A stretch of DNA of 64,000 bases from Candidatus Electrothrix aarhusensis (GTDB lineage Bacteria; Desulfobacterota; Desulfobulbia; Desulfobulbales; Desulfobulbaceae). The notes below the pieces were generated by a model that searched no databases, was not told the DNA's origin, and saw only the letters and a program-made list of their open reading frames with translations. The translations under genes were made by a program, and so were the position numbers. Where the stretch lies: positions 1 to 64,000 of the forward strand of contig MTKO01000137.1 of NCBI GenBank assembly GCA_004028505.1, in the 5' to 3' direction. Shown here piece by piece: positions 5,775 to 16,175 of this stretch (the first letter of the stretch is position 1; each line of letters begins with the position of its first letter).

Positions 5775-5910
5775 TCTTTTTCTCCGTGGGATAAGGTTGA
5801 GTTTTCCACCTCGTATAAAGACAGATAAATACAGCTCAGGGAAAGATGCATGCACCTCCCCCTGAAAAATAACTGGTATGTAAGACCTCAGGAAAGATCA
5901 TCAGAAAAAA

Positions 5911-7044
5911 TCAGAGGCTGTGGCTTGCTTGGAATGTCTTGAGGACCTCTACAATGCGTGCTGCGGCCTGACCATCACCGTAGGGATTGCTCTTACTCGC
6001 CATGCTCTGATAGGCCTTCTCGTCGGTTAAAAGACGTTCTGTTTCTCGAATGATCAATTCCTTATTTGTCCCGACTAGGCGGACCGTTCCCGTCTCTACA
6101 GCCTCGGGTCGCTCCGTGCTCTCCCGCATGACTAGAACCGGTTTACCCAGCGAAGGGGCCTCTTCCTGTACTCCACCGGAATCGGTCAGGATCAGGCGGG
6201 CCTGCCCCATTGCCTGGATAAAGGGCGCATAGTCCAGCGGTGAGATCAGATGGATGTTTTTTTTCTTTCCGAGCAGGGCATTCACCGGCTGCTGAACATT
6301 GGGGTTCAGGTGCACAGGATAAATAAAACCGATCTCTGGATGCCTGTCCGCCAGCACTGCAATGGCCTCGCAGATATTTTGAAAACCATCGCCAAAGTTT
6401 TCCCGGCGATGACCGGTGATCAGAACATAAGGTCGGCCCTCCTGAACAAGAGACCCTGCCGGGCCAAAGGGCTCAGGATTGATTTCTGTACCTGTTTGCT
6501 GTCGTACCCAAAGCAAAGCGTCGATGACGGTATTGCCGGTTAGATGCACAGTATCTTTTGCAATACCCTCGTTATACAAATTGTTGCAGGACTGTTCTGT
6601 GGGCGCAAAATGGAGTGCTGCCAGTCGCGAGGTCATGGCCCGATTAGCCTCTTCCGGGAACGGCGCATAAATATCAGCCGTCCGCAGACCCGCCTCTATA
6701 TGGCCGACAGGAATTCGGAGATAAAAAGCAGCCAAGCTGCCGATAAAGCAGGTGGTGGTGTCTCCCTGGACAAGAACAAAATCCGGTTTTTCTCGCTGCA
6801 AAACTTCGCGCAAGCCGATAAGAATCCGCGAGCTCAGATCGAAGAGATCCTGATTGTTCTGCATGACGTCTAAATCATAGTCCGTCCTGATGGAAAAAAG
6901 CTCCAGTACTTGGTCCAGCATCTGGCGATGTTGGGCCGTGACGCAGACCTTGACCGTGAATTCCGGTGCAGCAGTAAGGGCGTGGATGACCGGAGCCATT
7001 TTAATGGCTTCCGGTCTGGTTCCAAAGATGGTAAGAACCTTCAT
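5911..7044 (-). CDS. wecB: UDP-N-acetylglucosamine 2-epimerase (non-hydrolysing)
   Basis: Interconverts UDP-GlcNAc and UDP-ManNAc in the cytosol, supplying ManNAc-type sugars for surface polysaccharide. The 377-residue protein opens with the family motif FGTRPEAIKMAPV and has HIEAGLRT near residue 115 and TDSGGVQEEAPSLGKPVLVMR-type UDP-binding residues near 285-305. An alternative TTG start lies 24 bases upstream; I use the ATG that places FGTRPE at residues 6-11, as in the family. It starts 32 bases after the restored end of dnaJ, suggesting a shared transcript. No other glycan genes are adjacent. Confidence 0.93.
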   Translation of the reverse strand: MKVLTIFGTRPEAIKMAPVIHALTAAPEFTVKVCVTAQHRQMLDQVLELFSIRTDYDLDVMQNNQDLFDLSSRILIGLREVLQREKPDFVLVQGDTTTCFIGSLAAFYLRIPVGHIEAGLRTADIYAPFPEEANRAMTSRLAALHFAPTEQSCNNLYNEGIAKDTVHLTGNTVIDALLWVRQQTGTEINPEPFGPAGSLVQEGRPYVLITGHRRENFGDGFQNICEAIAVLADRHPEIGFIYPVHLNPNVQQPVNALLGKKKNIHLISPLDYAPFIQAMGQARLILTDSGGVQEEAPSLGKPVLVMRESTERPEAVETGTVRLVGTNKELIIRETERLLTDEKAYQSMASKSNPYGDGQAAARIVEVLKTFQASHSL

Positions 7045-7076
7045 CGCGTATCCATCTGGTGACAGCAAGGGTTTGG

Positions 7077-8020
7077 CTATAAACCTAATTTAGCCAGTTT
7101 CTGGATCGCTTCTTCCTGTTCCTCGGTCAACTCTCTTGGAATGTCGACAAAAATTTTAACATAGATGTCTCCCCGTACCCCTATGGGACCGGACGGCAGG
7201 CCATGTCCTTGATACGCAGTTTGGCTTCCTGCTGCACCCCGGCAGGCACCTTGAGCTTGAATTTTCGTTCGTCCAGCGAAGTGATTTCCACAGCTGTTCC
7301 CAAACAGGCTTGGCTGAAGGGCACTTTCTTTTCCGTGATCAGGTTGTCGCCGTCACGGGTGAAACTGCTGTGGGGCTGAACAGTCACTTTGAGGTAAAGA
7401 TCACCCGGAGGCCCGCCGGAAGGAGAGGGTGCTCCTTTGCCGGAAAGGCGCAGGCGTTTCCCGGACTCAATCCCCTTGGGTACTTTAACCGCAATATTCT
7501 GGTTGCCGCCATCACGGCGCAGGCTGATGTTTTTTTCCGCACCGTGCAGCACATCCTCAAGGGAGACAGCCAGTTCGTAGGTCTGGTCCTGTCCTTTGAC
7601 CGGCTGGGGGCGACATCCGCCGCCACCGCATCCACCACCTTGAGCTCCTCCTCCCGCCTGGCTGAAAAAATCAAAGGGATTGCCGCCAGCAGCGCCTCCC
7701 TGACCGCCAAAACGGAAGCTGGTACGCCCACCGCCACCGCCGAACTGATTAAAGATATCATTGATATCAAACCCACGAAAGATGTCTTCCTGGGAATAAC
7801 GCTGCTGAAATCCGGCTGATCCGTAGGTGTCGTATTCCTGTCGTTTCTTTTCGTCGGAAAGAACAGCATAGGCCTCGCTGATCTGCTTGAATTTGTCCTC
7901 GGCCTCCTTGTTGTCCGGGTTTTTATCCGGATGATATTTCAAGGCCAGTTTACGGTAGGATTTTTTTATTTCAGCTGCGGATGCTGCTTTTTCAACACCG
8001 AGAATTTTATAGTATTCCAT
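7077..8020 (-). CDS. DnaJ/CbpA-type co-chaperone, frameshifted
   Basis: Hsp40 that stimulates DnaK ATPase through its J domain. Residues 1-70 form the J domain with HPDKNPDN; a Gly/Phe-rich stretch follows ([16 protein letters not shown]); the C-terminal substrate-binding domain begins near residue 150. Only two cysteines occur in the Gly-rich linker, so there is no DnaJ zinc finger and this is a class II (CbpA-like) protein. The uninterrupted frame stops at 7181, but the next frame carries on in register ([18 protein letters not shown] then a helix ending LAKLGL) to a stop at 7077. One missing G near 7200 (GGGCC read as GGCC) explains this; the whole protein would be 314 residues, the usual length. 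Confidence 0.88.
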
Positions 8021-8244
8021 ATATTTTGTTGTTTTTCAGTCTTCTCAAAATGCATTAAACGTAGAGTTACGCTTCATGAATGAAAGGAGAAGTTGTTATA
8101 CACTGATGTTTCGAGTTCTGAGACGTTTTTTCCAATGCCAAAGAAAAAATAAGAACAAAATGAAATTTGTCCAATGAAATTTTTCTGGTTACGGAGGTGC
8201 CGGTTGGAAAACTGAGTTATCTCAAGACGGAGAAAATAAAAATG

Positions 8245-8270
8245 GCGAAGAGTCGCAGGTGACTCTTCGC
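8245..8270 (-). terminator. Terminator of ssb
   Basis: Perfect 10-bp stem GCGAAGAGTC / GACTCTTCGC with a 6-base loop, followed on the minus strand by a T-rich tail (complement of AGAAAATAAAAAT at 8231-8243). It lies just downstream of ssb. Confidence 0.85.
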
Positions 8271-8302
8271 CCTTAAGACAGAGGAGGCAGAGAAGTATCC
8301 GT

Positions 8303-8830
8303 TTAGAACGGTACGTCGCTCCCCGTACCCCCGCCTGTCTGGCCACCGGATTGTCCGCCAGCAAAATCGTCATAGCCTGATCCTGCCGGAGAATTTTTGT
8401 TACTACTACTACTACTGCTGCCGCCAGCAGGGCCTGGATCGTATCCTCCTCCTCCACCACTGCCACTCGTGCTGCCACCACCGCTATAACCTCCGCCACC
8501 TTCGCCACGCGGGGTCAGAAACTGCACATCCGAGGCAACAATTTCTGTTGTGTAGCGATCATTACCGCTCTGATCCTGCCATTTTCTGGTCTGGAGCCTG
8601 CCTTCTACGTAGACTTTTGAGCCTTTATGAAGGTATTCGTTGCATATTTCTCCAAGACGTTGCCAGGCAACAATTTTATGCCATTCTGTTTCTTCCTGTT
8701 GTTGTCCTTCCTTGTCTTTCCAGCGTCTGGTCGTGGCGACATTAAAGCTTGCCACTGCTACTCCGCTTTGGGTGTACCGCAGTTCAGGATCAGCTCCGAG
8801 GTTGCCTATTAACATCGCTTTATTCAGCAT
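8303..8830 (-). CDS. ssb: Single-stranded DNA-binding protein
   Basis: Binds and protects single-stranded DNA in replication and repair and recruits partners through its tail. Residues 1-108 form the OB fold ([41 protein letters not shown]). Residues 110-165 are a low-complexity Gly/Ser-rich linker, and the protein ends in the conserved acidic tip DVPF, so it is complete at 175 residues. Single gene with a strong terminator at 8245-8270; the 282-base gap to dnaJ holds only that terminator and presumably the dnaJ promoter. Confidence 0.96.
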
Positions 8831-9019
8831 AATTTCATCAGTTCCTGTATGTTGGAGTTGGCGTCAACACGAACTCCTTTTCGTAGTTTCCATTCTTGAT
8901 ATAAATACACAACTGGCGGGTCAAATTTAACTCATGTAGAGTAACCTTCTTTTTATCTTTCTTCCCTAAAAAGTCAAGAGGAAAAGGTGGCAGCGGTCTT
9001 GGATGAGAGGAGAAGAATT

Positions 9020-9044
9020 GCCGGTGTGCTCCGGCTGTTTTTTT
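9020..9044 (+). terminator. Orphan plus-strand terminator upstream of birA
   Basis: GCCGG (9020-9024) pairs with CCGGC (9031-9035), followed by a run of seven T. No plus-strand gene ends nearby: the 315 bases 8831-9145 between divergent ssb and birA hold no open frame I can support. It could end a small RNA or act as a leader attenuator for birA. Confidence 0.5.
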
Positions 9045-9145
9045 GGGTTACGCAATCCATTGAAATCAAGTACTATGACAGGATGAATTTTGCCCTTCAC
9101 GTTTAAAGGTAACGATGATGCAAGAGAAAAACGAGAAAGTCAGTT

Positions 9146-9925
9146 ATGCATAATCAGCAGGAGCAATTACATCATCGCTTGTATCATTACTTTCCGACCA
9201 TTGATTCCACCAATACCCTTGCCGTCAACATGGCGGAACAGGGTGCGGAACATGGCACCGTCGTTCATGCGGGCAAGCAGACTGGCGGGAGAGGGCGAGG
9301 TGGACGACAATTCGAGTCTCCTGCTGGCGGACTGTATTTCTCTTTGATTCTTCGCCCGGAGCTTGATGTCAGCGTTCTGCCACTCATCACGCTGGCTGCC
9401 GGAACAAGCCTCTGTGCAAGTATTCGGGAAATTGTAGCCGTGCCTGTTATGATGAAGTGGCCCAATGATCTTTATTTGTATGAAAAGAAGCTTGCCGGAA
9501 TCCTCACAGAATCAGGACCTATTCGCAGAGGACGAGCAAGCTTTGTTGTTATCGGGGTTGGGCTCAATGTGACCACAACGCCGGAACAGTTTTCTCCGGA
9601 ACTGCGTCGGAAAAGTATTTCCTTGGTTTCTTGTTCTGTCGATTCTGCCAGACCGCAGGAGGTGGATGCATTACTTCCTTTGTTCGTCAAGGCGTTGCAC
9701 AAGGCCAGCCAACGACTGGCTGAAGATAAAGAGCAGTTGCTCGCCCAGTGGCGTACATTTGATTATCTCCGAGGCAGGCAGTTGCACTATGTCCGGCATG
9801 AGAAAGAAATTCCGGCAACAGGGATAGGGCTTGCCGAGGACGGACAATATATTATACTTGATGACCAAGGGATTGAGCATCGGGTAACAGCCGGTGACTT
9901 AAATCCTGTCAGGCCGGTATATTAA
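9146..9925 (+). CDS. birA: Biotin--[acetyl-CoA-carboxylase] ligase (no HTH domain)
   Basis: Activates biotin with ATP and attaches it to a lysine of biotin carboxyl carrier proteins. The catalytic motif GGRGRGGRQFESPAGGLYFS is at residues 47-66 and the ATP/biotin pocket motif MKWPNDLYLYEKKLAGILTE near 102-121. At 259 residues it lacks the N-terminal helix-turn-helix of E. coli BirA, so it is a group I ligase that should not act as a repressor. The C-terminal SH3-like domain is present. The next gene starts 38 bases on. Confidence 0.92.
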   Translation: MHNQQEQLHHRLYHYFPTIDSTNTLAVNMAEQGAEHGTVVHAGKQTGGRGRGGRQFESPAGGLYFSLILRPELDVSVLPLITLAAGTSLCASIREIVAVPVMMKWPNDLYLYEKKLAGILTESGPIRRGRASFVVIGVGLNVTTTPEQFSPELRRKSISLVSCSVDSARPQEVDALLPLFVKALHKASQRLAEDKEQLLAQWRTFDYLRGRQLHYVRHEKEIPATGIGLAEDGQYIILDDQGIEHRVTAGDLNPVRPVY

Positions 9926-9962
9926 AGAGAAGAGAGAAGAAGAGGCGGAAGAAATAAGGAAT

Positions 9963-10979
9963 ATGTCTATGGAACAGAAAAAGTTTAAGGCTCTGGTGGT
10001 TCGTGAAGATGAAGAACAGCAATTTCATCGGGCACTGGAAGAATGCACGGTTGCCGAGCTTCCGCCCGGTGATGTCCTGATTCGAGTTTGTTTTTCATCG
10101 CTGAATTATAAGGACGCCCTGTCTGCCAGCGGTAATCGAGGGGTAACAAAGGCCTATCCACATACACCGGGTATAGATGCCGCAGGGGTAGTAGTTGCCT
10201 CGGCAACGGATCAGTTCAGCGAGGGAGATGAGGTCATCTGTATGGGCTATGATCTCGGTATGAATACCTCTGGCGGATTTGCTGAATATATTTCGGTTCC
10301 CAATGGCTGGGTGTTGTCCAAACCCGCTGGACTGTCTTTGTACGAGGCCATGCAGATCGGCACAGCCGGTTTTACCGCAGCCCAATGCGTGGAACGTTTG
10401 ATTTCTTTAGGTGTGCGTCCAGATCAGGGGCCTGTATTGGTGACCGGCGCTACCGGCGGTGTGGGTTCCACAGCTGTTGCTCTGCTGAGTAAGCTTGGTT
10501 TTCAGGTCACAGCAGTAACCGGTAAAGAAAGCGAACATGCTTTTTTAAAGGAATTGGGTGCTGTGAACGTTCTTACGAGAAAGCAGGCTGCTGGTCGTGT
10601 CGGTGCAGCTCTATTAAGAGAACGGTGGGCCGGTGTGGTTGATACTGTCGGTGGCGAACTCCTCGCCGGTGCTGTGAAAGCAACCCGATATGGGGGCGTT
10701 GTGGCCTGTTGCGGTAATGCAGCGTCCGGTGACCTCCCGCTGACAGTGTATCCCTTTATCCTGCGAGGGGTCTGTTTGATCGGCATTGACTCTGCCAACT
10801 GTCCCATGATACGCCGGGAAGAGATCTGGCAGGAGCTTGCCGATGGTTGGCGTTTGAGCATGCTGGACGGACTGACCACCCGTATTTCTCTTGAGCAGCT
10901 TGATCAATATATTGAGGCCATGCTTGCTGGCAAGACAACAGGTCGAATCGTGATTGATCTCGGAGGGACAGCGGAATGA
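9963..10979 (+). CDS. YhdH/AcuI-family NADPH-dependent reductase
   Basis: Medium-chain zinc-independent dehydrogenase/reductase of the YhdH/YhfP (acrylyl-CoA reductase, quinone oxidoreductase) group. The 338 residues have the N-terminal GroES-like fold (FSSLNYKDALSASG, conserved in AcuI) and the dinucleotide-binding motif VTGATGGVGSTAVALL near residues 161-176. Zinc-ligand cysteines of alcohol dehydrogenases are absent. AcuI reduces acryloyl-CoA to propionyl-CoA; whether that is the substrate here cannot be read from sequence. The stop overlaps the kdsD start (ATGA), so the two are translationally coupled, although their functions look unrelated. Confidence 0.85.
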   Translation: MSMEQKKFKALVVREDEEQQFHRALEECTVAELPPGDVLIRVCFSSLNYKDALSASGNRGVTKAYPHTPGIDAAGVVVASATDQFSEGDEVICMGYDLGMNTSGGFAEYISVPNGWVLSKPAGLSLYEAMQIGTAGFTAAQCVERLISLGVRPDQGPVLVTGATGGVGSTAVALLSKLGFQVTAVTGKESEHAFLKELGAVNVLTRKQAAGRVGAALLRERWAGVVDTVGGELLAGAVKATRYGGVVACCGNAASGDLPLTVYPFILRGVCLIGIDSANCPMIRREEIWQELADGWRLSMLDGLTTRISLEQLDQYIEAMLAGKTTGRIVIDLGGTAE

Positions 10980-11981
10980 CCCTAGAGCAGGCACGGGAAG
11001 TGCTAACAGTGGAGGCAGAGGGAATTACTGCTGTCCGGGATGCATTGGGCGAGGAGTTTGTTCAGGCTGTGAATTTGATCATGACTTGCCCAAGTCGGCT
11101 GGTGATCAGCGGGATCGGTAAATCCGGGCTGGTGGGGCAGAAGATTTCTGCCACCCTCAATTCAACCGGCACTCCGTCGTTTTTTCTTCATCCGGTGGAA
11201 GCCATGCACGGTGATTTGGGCATGGTTAGTCCCACAGATATTGTCTTGGCAATCTCGTACTCCGGTGAAACATCTGAGCTCAATGTATTGCTTGAAAGCT
11301 TGAAAAATCGTTCGGTGCAGATAATCGCCATGACAGGTAATCTTAACTCTACCCTTGCTCATGCTGCTGCGGTCACCCTGAACGTTGCTGTGCCTCGGGA
11401 GGCCTGTCCGCTTGGCCTGGCCCCGACCTCCTCCACGACGGCAACCCTTGCCCTGGGAGATGCATTGGCGGTGGCTCTTCTTAGGCGTAAGCGGTTTCGG
11501 GAAGAAGATTTTCGCAGGAATCATCGGCGGGAGTTTGGGAGAGCGATTAAAAGTCGCTGTACGGGAGGTCATGCTGACCAGTGATAAGGTTCCTCTGATC
11601 AGACAAGAAGAGACTTTGAAACAGGCTGTGGCCGAACTGAATAAGAAGAACATAGGGGCGGTGCTGGTGGTCAAGGAGTCTCATAAACTCTGCGGGATTA
11701 TTACCGACGGTGATATCAGGCGCCATCTGCTTGAGGAAAAATGGCTGGGCGGAGAAGCCAGTGGGGTTGGGCGATCCGAGGAGAGCAGGAAACAAATAAC
11801 CGAGATCATGACCCCACATCCCGTTACCATTTCTGGTGAGCTTATGGCTGCTGACGCCCTTAGCCTTATGCAGAGTAAGGATATTACTGTCCTGGCAGTG
11901 GTTGACGAGGATCATAAGGTGGAGGGGATCCTTCACCTTCACGACCTGTTGGGTAAGGGCGAGTTTCGTTTTCTCATCTGA
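10976..11981 (+). CDS. kdsD: Arabinose-5-phosphate isomerase, frameshifted
   Basis: Converts ribulose 5-phosphate to arabinose 5-phosphate, the first step toward Kdo for lipopolysaccharide. Residues 1-185 are the SIS sugar-isomerase domain (SGIGKSGLVGQKISATLNSTG; SYSGETSE); two CBS domains follow. The first frame stops at 11584, but family homologs continue NHPGGSLGERL, and SLGERLKVAVREVM is present in the next frame. The break is at about 11526, where NHPGG should be encoded; two missing bases restore a 335-residue protein, the usual size. A conserved Kdo enzyme implies a Kdo-containing outer membrane. Sequencing error is more likely than decay because both halves are intact. Confidence 0.88.
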
Positions 11982-12007
11982 TCGCCCCCTGTTTATTACC
12001 GGTGCCG

Positions 12008-12035
12008 GTAGGGGCACGGCGCGCCGTGCCCCTAC
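12008..12035. repeat. Palindromic repeat (GTAGGGGC family)
   Basis: A 28-base perfect palindrome: GTAGGGGCACGGCG (12008-12021) followed by its reverse complement. Same family as 1632-1658, and placed between kdsD and cooT, where it can serve as a strong hairpin after kdsD. Confidence 0.75.
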
Positions 12036-12072
12036 GATACTCTGCATACAAAAATAAAAAACGAGCAAGAAA

Positions 12073-12279
12073 ATGTGTCAGTTAAATGTGGTGATGGAGC
12101 GAGAGGGTAAGCAGGAAACCCTAATGGAAGCTGTCACGGGCCTAGAGGTTACGGAGCAGGGCATTGTCCTTCGTACCTATTTTGAAGAGCCCATGACGAT
12201 CGGCAATGCCTCTGTTAAGAGCATTGATTTTATCGGAGGTTCCGTGGTATTGGCCTCAGATACCTCCGGTAAAAGCTGA
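12073..12279 (+). CDS. cooT: CooT-family nickel-binding protein
   Basis: Small 68-residue protein beginning MCQLNVVMEREG. CooT proteins are ~65-residue dimers that bind nickel through Cys2 and help mature Ni-containing carbon monoxide dehydrogenase. Length, the N-terminal MCQ and the pattern of short beta strands fit. No CODH gene is in the window, so the client enzyme is elsewhere or another nickel enzyme. The next gene 53 bases on encodes a His-rich protein, which supports a metal-handling pair. Confidence 0.85.
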   Translation: MCQLNVVMEREGKQETLMEAVTGLEVTEQGIVLRTYFEEPMTIGNASVKSIDFIGGSVVLASDTSGKS

Positions 12280-12332
12280 GAGAGACTAAGAGCATAAAGA
12301 GAATAACTTGAAAAGAACCTGAGGGCTCTGCA

Positions 12333-12623
12333 ATGAACGATATTGATAAATTACGAGTAATGCTGCCGCACTGGATTGATCACAACCAGGGGCATGGAGG
12401 AGAATTCGCACAATGGGCGGAAAAGTTGACAGCTGATTCTCCAGAGGTGGCCCAGTTGCTTCGTGATGCTGTTCAGTCCCTGCAAGAGGCACAAATCCGC
12501 CTTGAAGAGGCCCTGGATAAGGCAGGCGGACCTCTTGAGGCACCGGGCGGTCAGAGTGGGAGTGGACACGAGCATAATCACAAACATAATCATGAACACA
12601 GTCATGAGCATGAACACGGATAG
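12333..12623 (+). CDS. Small protein with His-rich C-terminal tail (DUF8180-like)
   Basis: A 96-residue protein. The N-terminal ~65 residues are helical (LRVMLPHWIDHNQGHGGEFAQWAEKL), a pattern I associate with the uncharacterised DUF8180 family. After a Gly/Pro linker the last ~22 residues alternate His with Glu/Asn/Lys (HEHNHKHNHEHSHEHEHG), a metal-binding tail like those of nickel chaperones and storage proteins. It follows cooT in the same direction, so a role in nickel storage or delivery is a reasonable inference. A hairpin at 12640-12669 ends the unit. Confidence 0.75.
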   Translation: MNDIDKLRVMLPHWIDHNQGHGGEFAQWAEKLTADSPEVAQLLRDAVQSLQEAQIRLEEALDKAGGPLEAPGGQSGSGHEHNHKHNHEHSHEHEHG

Positions 12624-12639
12624 AGTCATTCATGACAAT

Positions 12640-12669
12640 GATGGCGGTCATCACCGATCAACCGCCATC
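12640..12669. terminator. Bidirectional terminator between cooT unit and E2-like gene
   Basis: GATGGCGGT (12640-12648) pairs with ACCGCCATC (12661-12669), a perfect 9-bp stem with a 12-base loop, placed between two convergent genes. T-rich bases follow on the plus strand (ATAACTTTTATAATTTT). Confidence 0.65.
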
Positions 12670-12680
12670 AATCATAACTT

Positions 12681-15058
12681 TTATAATTTTCCGTGGTAAG
12701 GACTCCAGTTTCCTGTTTCCAGGTCGTATTGGTAGGTCAGTTCCAAGGTGAGCTTGATGCCTTTCTTTTCCGTGCATTGAATGGTGTACAGTAACCGACC
12801 GTTTTTGACCTTTATAAAATAGATTCTCGGGTTGCTCAGCGGGGCATTGCGGGAAGAGGGGAATTCTTTTTTGAATATTTTTTCATAGTTTTCTTTCCAC
12901 CATTCTTGATTGCTGCTTTTTGCCGCTTCAAGGCTTTGCTCCTGAATTTTGGAGCGGATGTACCTCTCTAATTTTTTGAGATTATCATCCTTGCCACTTG
13001 AGAGGTACGGATGGTGCGTAACGTTTTCTTGTAATGGGCTAATGAGCTCCTTAAGTCGTTATTTTCTGCCTTAACCGCTTCTCTTAATTCCAGACTGACG
13101 GACAGCATAACAACAGTTTGCCCTACTTTAAGAACGGCATCATTATATATTGCATCAAGTGCTGAGCGCTCCTCCTTCAGCAGACGCAAAGCACCCTGAT
13201 ATTCGCTGATTGCATTCTCAAGCTCTCCTCCTTCATAGGCTTGACGTGCTATCTCTAGCTTTTGGTAAAGACGTGAATAGGCGACGAGGGATTGTAATTC
13301 TTTCTGTCGTTCCGGAGAGTCAATTGCTGGGTATTTACTGAGTAGCCTTTGAGTCTCATACGATCGCTCAGCACATCCCCCCCACTGATCAGCAGTAACG
13401 TCCTTATCTTCCGGGTTTGAGGGGTCAATTTCCTTTCTTTTCAATTCTTGAAAGAACGCTATGGTCTCTTGATATCTTTTTTCAGCTTTTCTTCGCTCCC
13501 TAAGCCGTTCTTCCTGTCCAGCTTGTGTTTGGAGTGTAGCAATTTTTTCCTGAATTACCTTAATCCGTTTGTCCAGTTCCGAGTTTGCTATCTTGGAGTG
13601 CGGTTCTAAAGCACCAGGTTTTGCTATCTCAGCCAGAGAAAGTGCTTCCTGGTACAAGGATAGCGCCTCAGTAAATTGTTCCTTTTGGATAGCAGAAGCA
13701 GCTTGATTGATTTTTTTGTCAACAGGTTCAAGTTTTTTGATGACCGATGCAGGGAGAGTGCTTCCTTTATATTCCTCATCACCAGTTTCTCCTTTTTTGA
13801 AGTCAGGAGAGGTGAGAATTTCATGAATTTCTGCCTCAAGTTTTTTTTGGCCGAGACCAGGAACGTAAATAGATTTAAGGTTGACCAGAAGTTTCTCTGC
13901 CTGGATTCGTTTTTTTCTGAATTGGTCAGGAGTCGTGCAGGATTGGTACTTAACTTCAATCCAATTTCGATTTGCCTCTGTCATTTTATCCATATCATTG
14001 GTGTACAGAAGGGTACAACCGCCTACTGCTGACAGGAGAACGATTCCTGTCAGGATCGGTTTTATGGGGATTACAATCGGAGCTCTGTTTTTGTTTCTTG
14101 ATATTTTTTCTTTCTCTTTTTTTTTCTCAAGAGGTTTTTTTTCTTTCTTTTTTGCGCCTTTTTTGCTCTTTATTGCGGTGGAATTCTGTTTATCTGCCGT
14201 TGGGTTGGGCTGGGAAAAGGTATCCAGCATGGCTTGGGATTGCTGTAAACGTTCTCCTATATCGGACAAGGCTGGTGTATCTATAGCAATTTCTCGTACT
14301 TTCTTGAAAATTGCATATGCTTCGGTGAATCTATCCTCGTTTTCAAGTTCTTCCAGTTTTTGAATGAGTTTGTCTCTTTTTGAGAGAGTTGAAGAAACAA
14401 TTTTTTCTAAACGTTGCGCTTCTGGAGAAGATGAGGAAAGGGTTGTGAGGAGTTTTCCGGCAATGACGACTTCATTTCTATCAATATGGCTTTGAATTTC
14501 CTCTAATTGTTCGTCAATATTTTCTTGCTGATCATCTATTTCCAAGCTCAGGCCAAGATCGCTGTCGTCTTCTAAAGAGAGCTCGTCGACTTCAAAGTCT
14601 GTACTTCCTTGTTGGATTTCATCCAGTGGAAACTCACTCGAATGTTCGCTATACCAGTCTGCTGCTTCCTGGTTGAATGGCTCTTCCAGATTATAGCTCT
14701 TTGCACAGATCATTTCTCCCATATGAACCATAAGCTCAGCCAGCGAAGGGTTCTGTTGCCAGTACGAGGCAATGCGGACCGCATCTGGATCAACGTCCGG
14801 GTGAAAAATAGAGGTTAACGGTTTAACCGTAGGGGGGAAGTGGGGGTATCCAAACGGGAGGCTGATACGCAAAAGGTGGCGGGAACCTTGACCGATACTG
14901 CCGTCTGTCTGGCGTATCAGTCCGGTAAGCTGGTATTCCACCTCATAGGCAGCAGGTGGGTCACCCTCCGTTTGCGCCACATGTATTTGCGGATATTGGG
15001 TTAGAAGTTTGTTGACTTCCTCAAAATCACGCGTAAGTTGATCTGTTTCTGAGGCCAT
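12681..15058 (-). CDS. E2/UBC-like domain transmembrane protein, frameshifted
   Basis: Residues ~1-146 match the ubiquitin-conjugating E2 core: LRISLPFGYPHFPP corresponds to the E2 FP..YP..PP strand, SIFHPDV to the HPNI turn, and EEPFNQEAADWY to the C-terminal P.N..AA..Y helix. Where E2s carry the active-site Cys (G-S-I-C-L) this protein reads V-R-I-A-S, so it should be inactive in conjugation, like UEV proteins. An acidic linker (150-180), a coiled-coil/TPR-like region (180-290), a Lys-rich stretch (297-325), one membrane helix (~328-352) and a long helical repeat region follow; positive charge suggests the E2 part is cytoplasmic. The first frame stops at 12968, but after one missing base near 13015 the next frame continues HPYLSSGKDDN to 12681, adding ~100 residues (about 792 in total). 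No E1, JAB or ubiquitin-like gene is adjacent. Function unknown. Confidence 0.72.
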
Positions 15059-15448: not shown

Positions 15449-15553
15449 ATGATTCCGGGTACAATCGGCTCTTTTTTGATCGGCATGATGATTATGCTGG
15501 CTTGTTGTATGGTCCTGAAGAACCGCAAGATTACTTTATTCGGTGGGAGTTAA
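15449..15553 (+). CDS. Possible 34-residue membrane peptide
   Basis: ATG at 15449 opens a 34-residue frame with one hydrophobic segment (TIGSFLIGMMIMLACCMVL) followed by a basic end (KNRK). Its stop lies 4 bases before the next gene's ATG, and its 3' end contains that gene's GGTGGGAG ribosome site, which suggests coupling. No good ribosome site precedes its own ATG. It could be a small membrane protein or a chance frame. Confidence 0.4.
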   Translation: MIPGTIGSFLIGMMIMLACCMVLKNRKITLFGGS

Positions 15554-15557
15554 AAAA

Positions 15558-16175
15558 ATGGCGAAACATATTGAAATAAATCCTGATAATCCCCAGCCCC
15601 GGCTCATCAGTATCGTGCTTGACACGCTGCGAAAAGGAGGAATTGTCTGCTATCCCACTGATACTATGTACGGTATCGGCTGTGATATCTTTAATCAGAA
15701 GGCGGTTAAGCGAGTTTATCAGGTCAAAAAACGTCCCAAGCTGAAACCCTTCTCCTTTATGTGCTCATCATTGAAGAATATCAGTGAATATGCTCATGTG
15801 GGTAATACTGCCTATCGGCTTATGCGTAAGCATCTACCGGGCCCCTATACGTTGGTCCTGCCTGGCTCTAAGTTGGTTCCTCAAATTATGTTGACTAAAC
15901 AGAAAACGGTCGGTATCCGAGTGCCAGACTCGCCTATCTGTCTTGCCGTGATTGAGGAGCTTGGGAATCCGCTGCTTAATACCAGTGCCATGCGGGATGA
16001 TTATGACGAGCCGGTCATTGATGCTTTTGATGTTGAAAAACTCTTTGGAAACGATGTCGATTTGATTATTGATGGTGGCGAAGTTTATCCCAACCCGTCA
16101 ACCGTCATTTCCCTGATTTCCGAACAGCCGGAAATTCTTCGTGAAGGCAAAGGAGATATTGCCCCCTTTTTGTAA
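15558..16175 (+). CDS. YrdC/YciO-family protein (threonylcarbamoyl-AMP synthase-like)
   Basis: A 205-residue protein with the YrdC fold: KGGIVCYPTDTMYGIGCD near residues 27-44, KKRPKLKPFSFMC near 57-69, and PGPYTLVLPGS. TsaC/Sua5 members make threonylcarbamoyl-adenylate for the t6A modification of tRNA. The length, without a Sua5 domain, fits TsaC or its paralog YciO, and the KPFSFMCSSLKNISEYA wording is closer to YciO, whose role is less settled. The start at 15558 follows GGTGGGAG; an alternative GTG-type start 15 bases earlier is less likely. Confidence 0.8.
   Translation: MAKHIEINPDNPQPRLISIVLDTLRKGGIVCYPTDTMYGIGCDIFNQKAVKRVYQVKKRPKLKPFSFMCSSLKNISEYAHVGNTAYRLMRKHLPGPYTLVLPGSKLVPQIMLTKQKTVGIRVPDSPICLAVIEELGNPLLNTSAMRDDYDEPVIDAFDVEKLFGNDVDLIIDGGEVYPNPSTVISLISEQPEILREGKGDIAPFL

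What the first reader, a model, noticed from the sequence alone, without database searches (positions are those of the whole stretch)
12681..15058. Bacterial membrane protein with an N-terminal E2/UBC-like fold lacking the catalytic cysteine
Residues ~60-136 follow the E2 core pattern in order: FP-YP-PP strand (LPFGYPHFPP), HPNI-like turn (HPDV), and the P.N..AA..Y helix (PFNQEAADWY). The active-site Cys position is Ala97 (VRIAS). The domain is tethered by one membrane helix to a long coiled-coil/TPR-like C-terminal part and a ~100-residue tail found only after correcting a frameshift. No E1, deubiquitinase or ubiquitin-like gene is nearby, so it is neither a CBASS/Bil-type operon nor an obvious conjugation system. 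It may be a UEV-like binding or scaffolding receptor, a combination I do not recognise.
Basis: partly seen in the sequence, partly recalled or inferred. Interest (0 to 1): 0.85.

Follow-up and report, generated by a model that had tools for sequence, protein, structure and literature searches.

The report
Membrane-anchored E2-fold protein, catalytic cysteine lost
A cable bacterium and many of its relatives carry a membrane protein whose inner end has the fold of ubiquitin-conjugating enzymes but an arginine in place of the catalytic cysteine, so a fold known for protein tagging seems to have been reused in bacteria as a binding module.

The parts
12968..15058 (-). 696-aa ORF: E2-like domain, linker, one membrane helix, most of a TPR-like region (full-length homologs of the genus are mostly about 790 aa)
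14609..15058 (-). E2/UBC-fold domain, residues 1-150
   Evidence: UQ_con; AlphaFold2 pLDDT 91.5; Foldseek and VIA-align; dN/dS about 0.09 against the two closest homologs
14792..14803 (-). HPDV, residues 86-89: HPN motif with Asp in place of Asn
14774..14776 (-). Arg95 codon, the position equivalent to the catalytic cysteine
14078..14608 (-). acidic, then K/R-rich linker, residues 151-327, predicted cytosolic, variable in length among homologs
14003..14077 (-). predicted membrane helix, residues about 328-352, N-terminus inside by the positive-inside rule
12968..14002 (-). predicted periplasmic TPR-like helical region (part that is in frame)
   Evidence: model of homolog L070; weak TPR matches, TPR_2 above cut-off in homologs L134 and L140
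12681..12995 (-). C-terminal ~100 residues in another frame: end of the helical region and conserved beta domain
12333..12623 (+). convergent 96-aa ORF without Pfam match, with homologs beside the E2-like gene in other genomes; not judged to be functionally linked
12073..12279 (+). CooT-family ORF, same remark
15543..16175 (+). YrdC/Sua5 gene, divergent; in the cable-bacteria loci it stands where other genera have the cNMP/DUF4388 gene

Best explanation
It is a single-pass inner-membrane protein whose cytosolic N-terminal domain is an E2-fold pseudo-enzyme. The domain no longer carries a ubiquitin-like protein. It serves as a protein-binding module, as UEV and RWD domains do in eukaryotes, with a conserved Arg95 where the thioester cysteine sat. 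Binding of a cytosolic partner would be relayed through the linker and membrane helix to the periplasmic TPR-like and beta domains, which dock on an envelope partner. The leading candidate for the cytosolic partner outside cable bacteria is the divergently encoded cyclic-nucleotide-binding/DUF4388 protein. Shown by computation: fold, loss of the cysteine, architecture, conservation, gene adjacency. Inferred: membrane orientation, protein binding, identity of the partner, signal relay.
For: UQ_con match and E2 fold. Column 95 is Arg in 55 of 74 rows, and those rows keep HPD and the structural E2 residues: a fixed replacement, not drift. The E2 domain is the most conserved part: mean column identity 58% against 39% for the part from the membrane helix on, dN/dS about 0.09 against the two closest homologs. 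No E1/JAB/Ubl neighbour seen (read by eye in 16 and 29); genome G014 (99% complete, one contig; its domain is an Ala, HPA type) has no ThiF match. Partner gene beside it in 63 of 74 testable loci, and in 9 of 9 loci that keep none of eight reference neighbours. E2-less chassis loci have no such gene in 10 of 10 with at least 900 bases upstream. K/R richer before than after the helix in 63 of 78 proteins.
Against: No interaction was tested. Seven cable-bacteria loci, and L123, L126, L130 and L141, have the E2 domain without the neighbour, so the partner is not obligatory or was replaced, and this includes the window's own lineage. The loci are related, so 63 and 9 are not independent events (L131-L134, L137 and L146 are one group); six of the seven seed proteins for the neighbour came from counted loci. 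Eighteen of 74 rows keep the cysteine, so part of the family could still do thiol chemistry. In G396 neighbour and E2 domain are both absent at what looks like the same locus, but they adjoin, so one deletion could explain it without a functional link. Absence of a cognate E1 or Ubl from whole genomes was not shown: the own genome has a ThiF and a JAB gene side by side elsewhere, and beta-grasp genes were not searched. In 15 of 78 proteins the charge rule for orientation fails.
Confidence: 0.55

Rival explanations
1. UEV-like helper of a real, undiscovered ubiquitin-like or sulfur-carrier pathway: the domain binds a ThiS/MoaD-type or other beta-grasp protein and an E1 encoded elsewhere, and recruits it to the membrane.
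For: The fold is the one that binds Ubls and E1s (recalled). 56 of 57 relatives including the own genome have a ThiF match, and 27 of 57 a JAB match over the cut-off. Loop 68-76 and the HPD turn, near the places that contact partners in E2s (recalled), are almost invariant.
Against: G014 has the domain and no ThiF match; 30 of 57 relatives, among them genomes with the domain such as G008 and G012, have no JAB match over the cut-off. No ThiF or JAB gene was seen adjacent to the E2-like gene. No Pfam UEV match.
Confidence: 0.15
2. Still a conjugating enzyme in the Cys-bearing families (Desulfocapsa, Desulfofustis, Desulfurivibrio-like), with Arg forms as regulators or degenerate copies.
For: Cys95 is invariant in the 18 Cys-type rows and aligns with the E2 catalytic Cys. 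In two genera a Cys (once Ser) long form coexists with a short Arg or Pro form.
Against: HPN is HPD in all 18 Cys-type rows. No E1, JAB or Ubl gene was seen by eye within about 4 kb in the 18 Cys-type loci. One long copy has Ser (G426), and Desulfobia has Arg inside the Cys clade.
Confidence: 0.1
3. General envelope scaffold: the conserved part is the membrane-TPR-beta chassis, and the E2 domain only adds one of several interchangeable cytosolic contacts, with no link to the neighbouring cNMP/DUF4388 gene.
For: E2-less homologs with the same C-terminus exist in other families of the order. Cable bacteria keep the protein without the neighbour.
Against: The E2 domain is more conserved than the chassis. 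Nine loci that keep none of eight reference neighbours keep this one.
Confidence: 0.18
4. Chance resemblance or assembly artefact.
For: The copy in the window is frameshifted, and a second nearby gene (KdsD-like) is split too.
Against: Family-wide profile, structure and purifying selection.
Confidence: 0.01

Closest known systems
Eukaryotic E2 enzymes (UBE2C, UBE2S, UBE2D; Pfam PF00179 UQ_con)
   Same: Sequence family match and fold
   Different: Catalytic Cys is Arg, HPN is HPD, fused to a membrane-TPR-beta chassis, bacterial, no E1/Ubl partner seen nearby
UEV and RWD domains (catalytically dead E2 folds; recalled)
   Same: E2 fold without the cysteine; the model has no further helix after residue 138, as UEVs lack the last helices (recalled)
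   Different: No Pfam UEV match; the only RWD match is a weak one elsewhere in the protein (residues 627-663, below cut-off); no known ligand
Bacterial inactive E2/RWD-like domains in polyUbl operons (Iyer et al. 2006, PMC1779556, table row 6e; passages seen)
   Same: Bacterial, E2-like, cysteine lost
   Different: Those are described in operons with polyUbl, JAB-E1 and a metal-binding protein; none was seen here, and this family is spread over an order
BilB and Cap2-type E2s of Bil and CBASS systems (PMC11354881 passages; PMC10097602 listing and start of abstract only)
   Same: E2 fold in bacteria
   Different: BilB is an active E2 with E1 and JAB genes in its operon; no PADLOC model matches the window protein or two homologs
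EssB/YukC of type VII secretion (recalled, an analogy only)
   Same: Dead-enzyme domain in the cytosol, one membrane helix, helical extracytoplasmic part
   Different: EssB has a pseudokinase, not an E2 fold; not compared here

Membership tests
E2/UBC superfamily (UQ_con) | Sequence match to the family model | tested here: met
   37.5 bits against cut-off 27; 74 of 74 family rows at E<=0.01, some below the cut-off
E2/UBC superfamily (UQ_con) | UBC fold | tested here: met
Active E2 conjugating enzyme | Catalytic cysteine | tested here: not met
   Arg95 in the window; R 55, C 18, A 1 of 74 rows
Active E2 conjugating enzyme | HPN motif | tested here: not met
   HPD in the window, in all 55 R-type and all 18 C-type rows; HPA in the A-type row
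Active E2 conjugating enzyme | Cognate E1 and Ubl | tested here: inconclusive
   None seen adjacent; a ThiF and a JAB gene exist elsewhere in the own genome; G014 has no ThiF match; beta-grasp genes not searched
UEV domain | E2 fold without the cysteine | tested here: met
UEV domain | Match to the Pfam UEV model | tested here: not met
   No match at E<=10 for the window protein nor at E<=0.01 for 74 rows; HMMER filters drop most weak matches
UEV domain | Binds ubiquitin-like protein or a UEV ligand motif | not testable with these tools
   needs a binding assay
RWD domain | RWD sequence model over the E2-like part | tested here: not met
   RWD matches only 627-663, 14.5 bits, below cut-off 22.8
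Bil/CBASS/prokaryotic E1-E2-JAB operon | E1, JAB or Ubl genes in the operon | tested here: not met
   as a positive control such a cluster is seen in same-genus genome G006
Known anti-phage defence system | PADLOC model match | tested here: not met
   0 families at E<=0.01 for the window protein and homologs L134, L140. The neighbour L149 matches Pycsar models over its cyclic-nucleotide-binding part only
TPR protein (C-terminal half) | TPR model above cut-off | tested here: inconclusive

The most novel reading that the evidence does not exclude
The E2 fold was taken over, outside any ubiquitin-like system, as the receiver domain of an ordinary inherited bacterial envelope-signalling pathway: a cyclic-nucleotide-responsive DUF4388 protein docks on the E2 domain, and a single-pass TPR/beta protein carries the state to the periplasm. 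The family preserves the step from Cys-bearing to Arg-bearing form, so one could watch an enzyme fold become a receptor.
Probability: 0.3. Interest if true: 0.85.

Novelty: new variant of a known kind. Interest (0 to 1): 0.62.

Why it matters
[quoted passage not shown] Here an E2-fold domain that Pfam's UQ_con model recognises is found in 170 of 257 genomes of one order, without such genes seen beside it, in Cys, Arg, Ala, Pro and Ser versions and next to E2-less versions of the same protein. That gives a natural series for asking what the E2 fold does when it does not conjugate, and names one testable partner. Named strains of Desulfogranum, Desulfobulbus and Desulfofustis carry the gene.

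Tried and rejected
Catalytic position: pairwise phmmer with UBE2C opens its gap exactly at the cysteine, so it cannot place it; the Cys-bearing homologs settle it. Ala97 rejected.

RWD, CHAD, PRTRC_E and FliS matches to the rest of the protein: all below cut-off, rejected. MIT match in L070 (29.1 bits, cut-off 30): not pursued, likely helical similarity.

Viral and mobile origin: no match to one Cys-type E2 domain (L134) in plasmids or phages; one IMG/VR scan with A2 found no relative.

Fold of the C-terminal beta domain: no clear match. The search covered a 471-residue model in which helical matches dominate; the domain was not folded alone, so nothing is claimed about its novelty.

Operon with downstream genes: the KdsD-like, dehydrogenase and biotin-ligase genes run on the opposite strand in the loci where they were clustered and are shared only by part of the loci (KdsD in 58, BirA in 39 of 80): taken as synteny, not function.

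Literature: the ten searches listed no paper on this family; the held library lacks most subscription papers, so absence in print is not claimed. DUF4388 was found in one unrelated paper (listing only). PATAN/pilus papers were seen as a listing only and not used.

Full report

The active site. Homologs from sister families read "AICIGDFW" where the window reads "AVRIASYW", so the cysteine column is Arg95. The profile of 18 Cys-bearing rows aligns its Cys with the catalytic Cys in the three E2 alignments shown. In 74 rows the column is R 55, C 18, A 1. Seven of the 80 loci were left out of those rows because they were cut off or awkward (L086, L093, L103, L110, L116, L127, L128); one search shows R in all seven. 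HPN is HPD in all 55 R-type and all 18 C-type rows; the one A-type row reads HPA. Arg95 is thus a fixed residue of the R type. Cys78 is present in 18 of 18 Cys-type and 1 of 55 Arg-type rows.

History of the change. On a tree built without column 95 the labels need at least three changes: the main Arg clade (54 Arg rows and the Ala row), and Desulfobia (L124), Arg next to six Cys rows inside the otherwise Cys clade. The root is not known; that Cys is ancestral is inferred from its being the E2 residue. In two genera of family f12 a long form (about 830-895 aa) with Cys, or Ser in G426, coexists with a short form (about 533-553 aa) with Arg (G426, G427, G428) or Pro (G430, G431, G432).

Distribution. 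38 of 57 relatives match the whole protein. With the domain profile, 170 of 257 genomes of the order match; 70 of these are of the window's own family f1, and three f1 genomes are listed without a match (the list of misses is cut; the match in G371 is broken by stops). In the phylum sample it is 7 of 297: six of f1 and G081, outside the order, whose 1,054-aa protein has an E2 domain (HPN kept, Asp at the cysteine column by my reading), TPR-like helices by eye and one membrane helix. UQ_con itself is found in 6 of 198 phylum genomes, the five others besides G081 all f1, and in 0 of 14 control genomes; this model need not see divergent bacterial E2s. The named scan gave 82 relatives, 80 kept: mostly genera of the Desulfobulbales, some bins without a resolved name, and two labelled Desulfobacteraceae (L117, L123), of which L123 has the contig length of an f1 genome. 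So the window is most likely an Electrothrix cable bacterium. Conserved synteny and mostly single copies suggest vertical inheritance; the tree was not tested against a species tree.

Selection. Against the two closest homologs dN/dS is about 0.09 in the E2 domain, 0.14-0.20 in the linker and 0.19-0.26 after it. For more distant pairs synonymous sites are near saturation; for L031 against L032 the domain gives 0.20, no lower than its linker.

No conjugation system seen. No E1, JAB or Ubl gene adjoins the gene in the window; none was recognised by eye in the neighbourhoods or in the tables of 23 further loci, within about 4 kb (18 of them Cys-type). The own genome has one ThiF gene over the cut-off with a JAB gene beside it on another contig. 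G014, 99% complete in one contig, has the domain (an Ala, HPA type) and no ThiF match at all. As a positive control, the same-genus genome G006 does hold a separate cluster with ThiF and JAB matches, an E2-like protein with a Cys in its active-site stretch and PADLOC E1-E2 matches, so such systems are recognisable here and are something else. Beta-grasp genes were not searched in whole genomes.

A candidate partner. Divergently transcribed upstream, in 63 of 74 loci with at least 900 bases upstream, lies a protein of one family (six of the seven seed proteins came from these loci). Four of four long forms scanned have cNMP_binding and DUF4388 domains above cut-off; the one short form scanned has DUF4388 only. 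Nine loci (L124, L127, L131-L134, L136, L137, L146) keep none of eight reference neighbour genes at E<=1e-15, but all nine keep this one; several of the nine are close relatives. The eleven exceptions are seven loci of the cable-bacteria clade, where a YrdC gene is found, and L123, L126, L130, L141. Paralogs of about 30-34% identity lie elsewhere in the own genome; no remnant is seen beside the window gene.

E2-less relatives. A profile of the C-terminal part matches 170 of 252 genomes of the order. Of 13 stretches fetched for copies without an E2 match, 12 hold a protein of the same plan whose N-terminal part is helical and TPR-like by eye, or short (L270), with no E2 match at E<=1; one (L281) is a false match. 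My hydropathy cut found no membrane helix in two of the 12 (L273, L277). Four of the 12 come from genomes that also have an E2-bearing copy (G511, G521 twice, G525). None of the 13 stretches has the neighbour gene; 10 of the 12 reach at least 900 bases upstream. One (L270, G396) sits next to a HAD gene like the one that flanks the neighbour elsewhere (by eye), as if neighbour and E2 domain had been deleted together; as they adjoin, this may be mechanical.

How it most likely works. Shown: E2 fold, fixed loss of the cysteine and of HPN, membrane-TPR-beta architecture, strong conservation, no conjugation genes seen adjacent, a conserved neighbour. Inferred: the E2 domain binds a protein rather than carrying one in thioester linkage; the neighbour's product is the likely ligand where present; the membrane chassis passes the state to, or anchors, an envelope structure. 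Against it: cable bacteria, including the window's own organism, lack the neighbour, and Cys forms persist in sister families.

Comparison. It works like a UEV or RWD domain in the sense of a dead E2 fold, but is not shown to be a UEV: no UEV model match, ligand unknown. Iyer et al. 2006 (PMC1779556, passages) describe bacterial inactive E2/RWD-like domains in polyUbl-E1-JAB operons. A 2024 review (PMC11354881, passages and section 3.6) reports only single instances of human-like E2 domains, in four bacterial phyla, none of them this one. So the fold and the loss of the cysteine are known kinds; the architecture, the order-wide spread and the neighbour are new to me and were not seen in the listings of the ten searches.

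Noticed in passing
L232 (G006, same genus), 5820-13482: A separate ubiquitin-like cluster: E1-like protein of 767 aa, a 177-aa E2-like protein with Cys, a JAB protein and two further proteins that join an E2-like part (the second by eye) to a JAB domain; the last (716 aa) has a hydrophobic stretch after it by eye.
   Followed up: partly
window 10976-11981: The KdsD-like gene is split between two frames (SIS domain, then CBS domains), a second frameshift within 4 kb of the first, which suggests sequence errors in this contig.
   Followed up: partly
L221 6190-7341, L222 5866-6936 and 7048-8127, L223 7065-8159: Paralogs of the cNMP/DUF4388 neighbour in the window's own genome, with a Cys-containing N-terminal part (a Cys-Pro motif and C-x2-C); role unknown.
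   Followed up: no
L248/L262, L249/L264, L250/L263 (genomes G477, G469, G056): The C-terminal beta domain appears twice in tandem in one protein (two profile matches side by side in the same open frame).
   Followed up: no
alignment A4, residues 78 and 95: Two invariant cysteines (78 and 95) in all 18 Cys-type domains; 54 of 55 Arg-type rows lack both. A redox or metal role was not examined.
   Followed up: no
L233 3784-8418: Outside the order, an E2-TPR-membrane-helix protein (catalytic column Asp by my reading, HPN kept) lies just upstream, on the same strand, of a gene for a probable lipoprotein (by eye).
   Followed up: partly
neighbour genes of L124-L149: The neighbour is long (about 340-395 aa; cNMP domain in those scanned) in the Cys-type loci except L136 (206 aa) and L146 (cut off), also long in Desulfobia (Arg: L124, L127), and short (about 200-290 aa) in the Arg-type Desulfobulbaceae.
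   Followed up: partly
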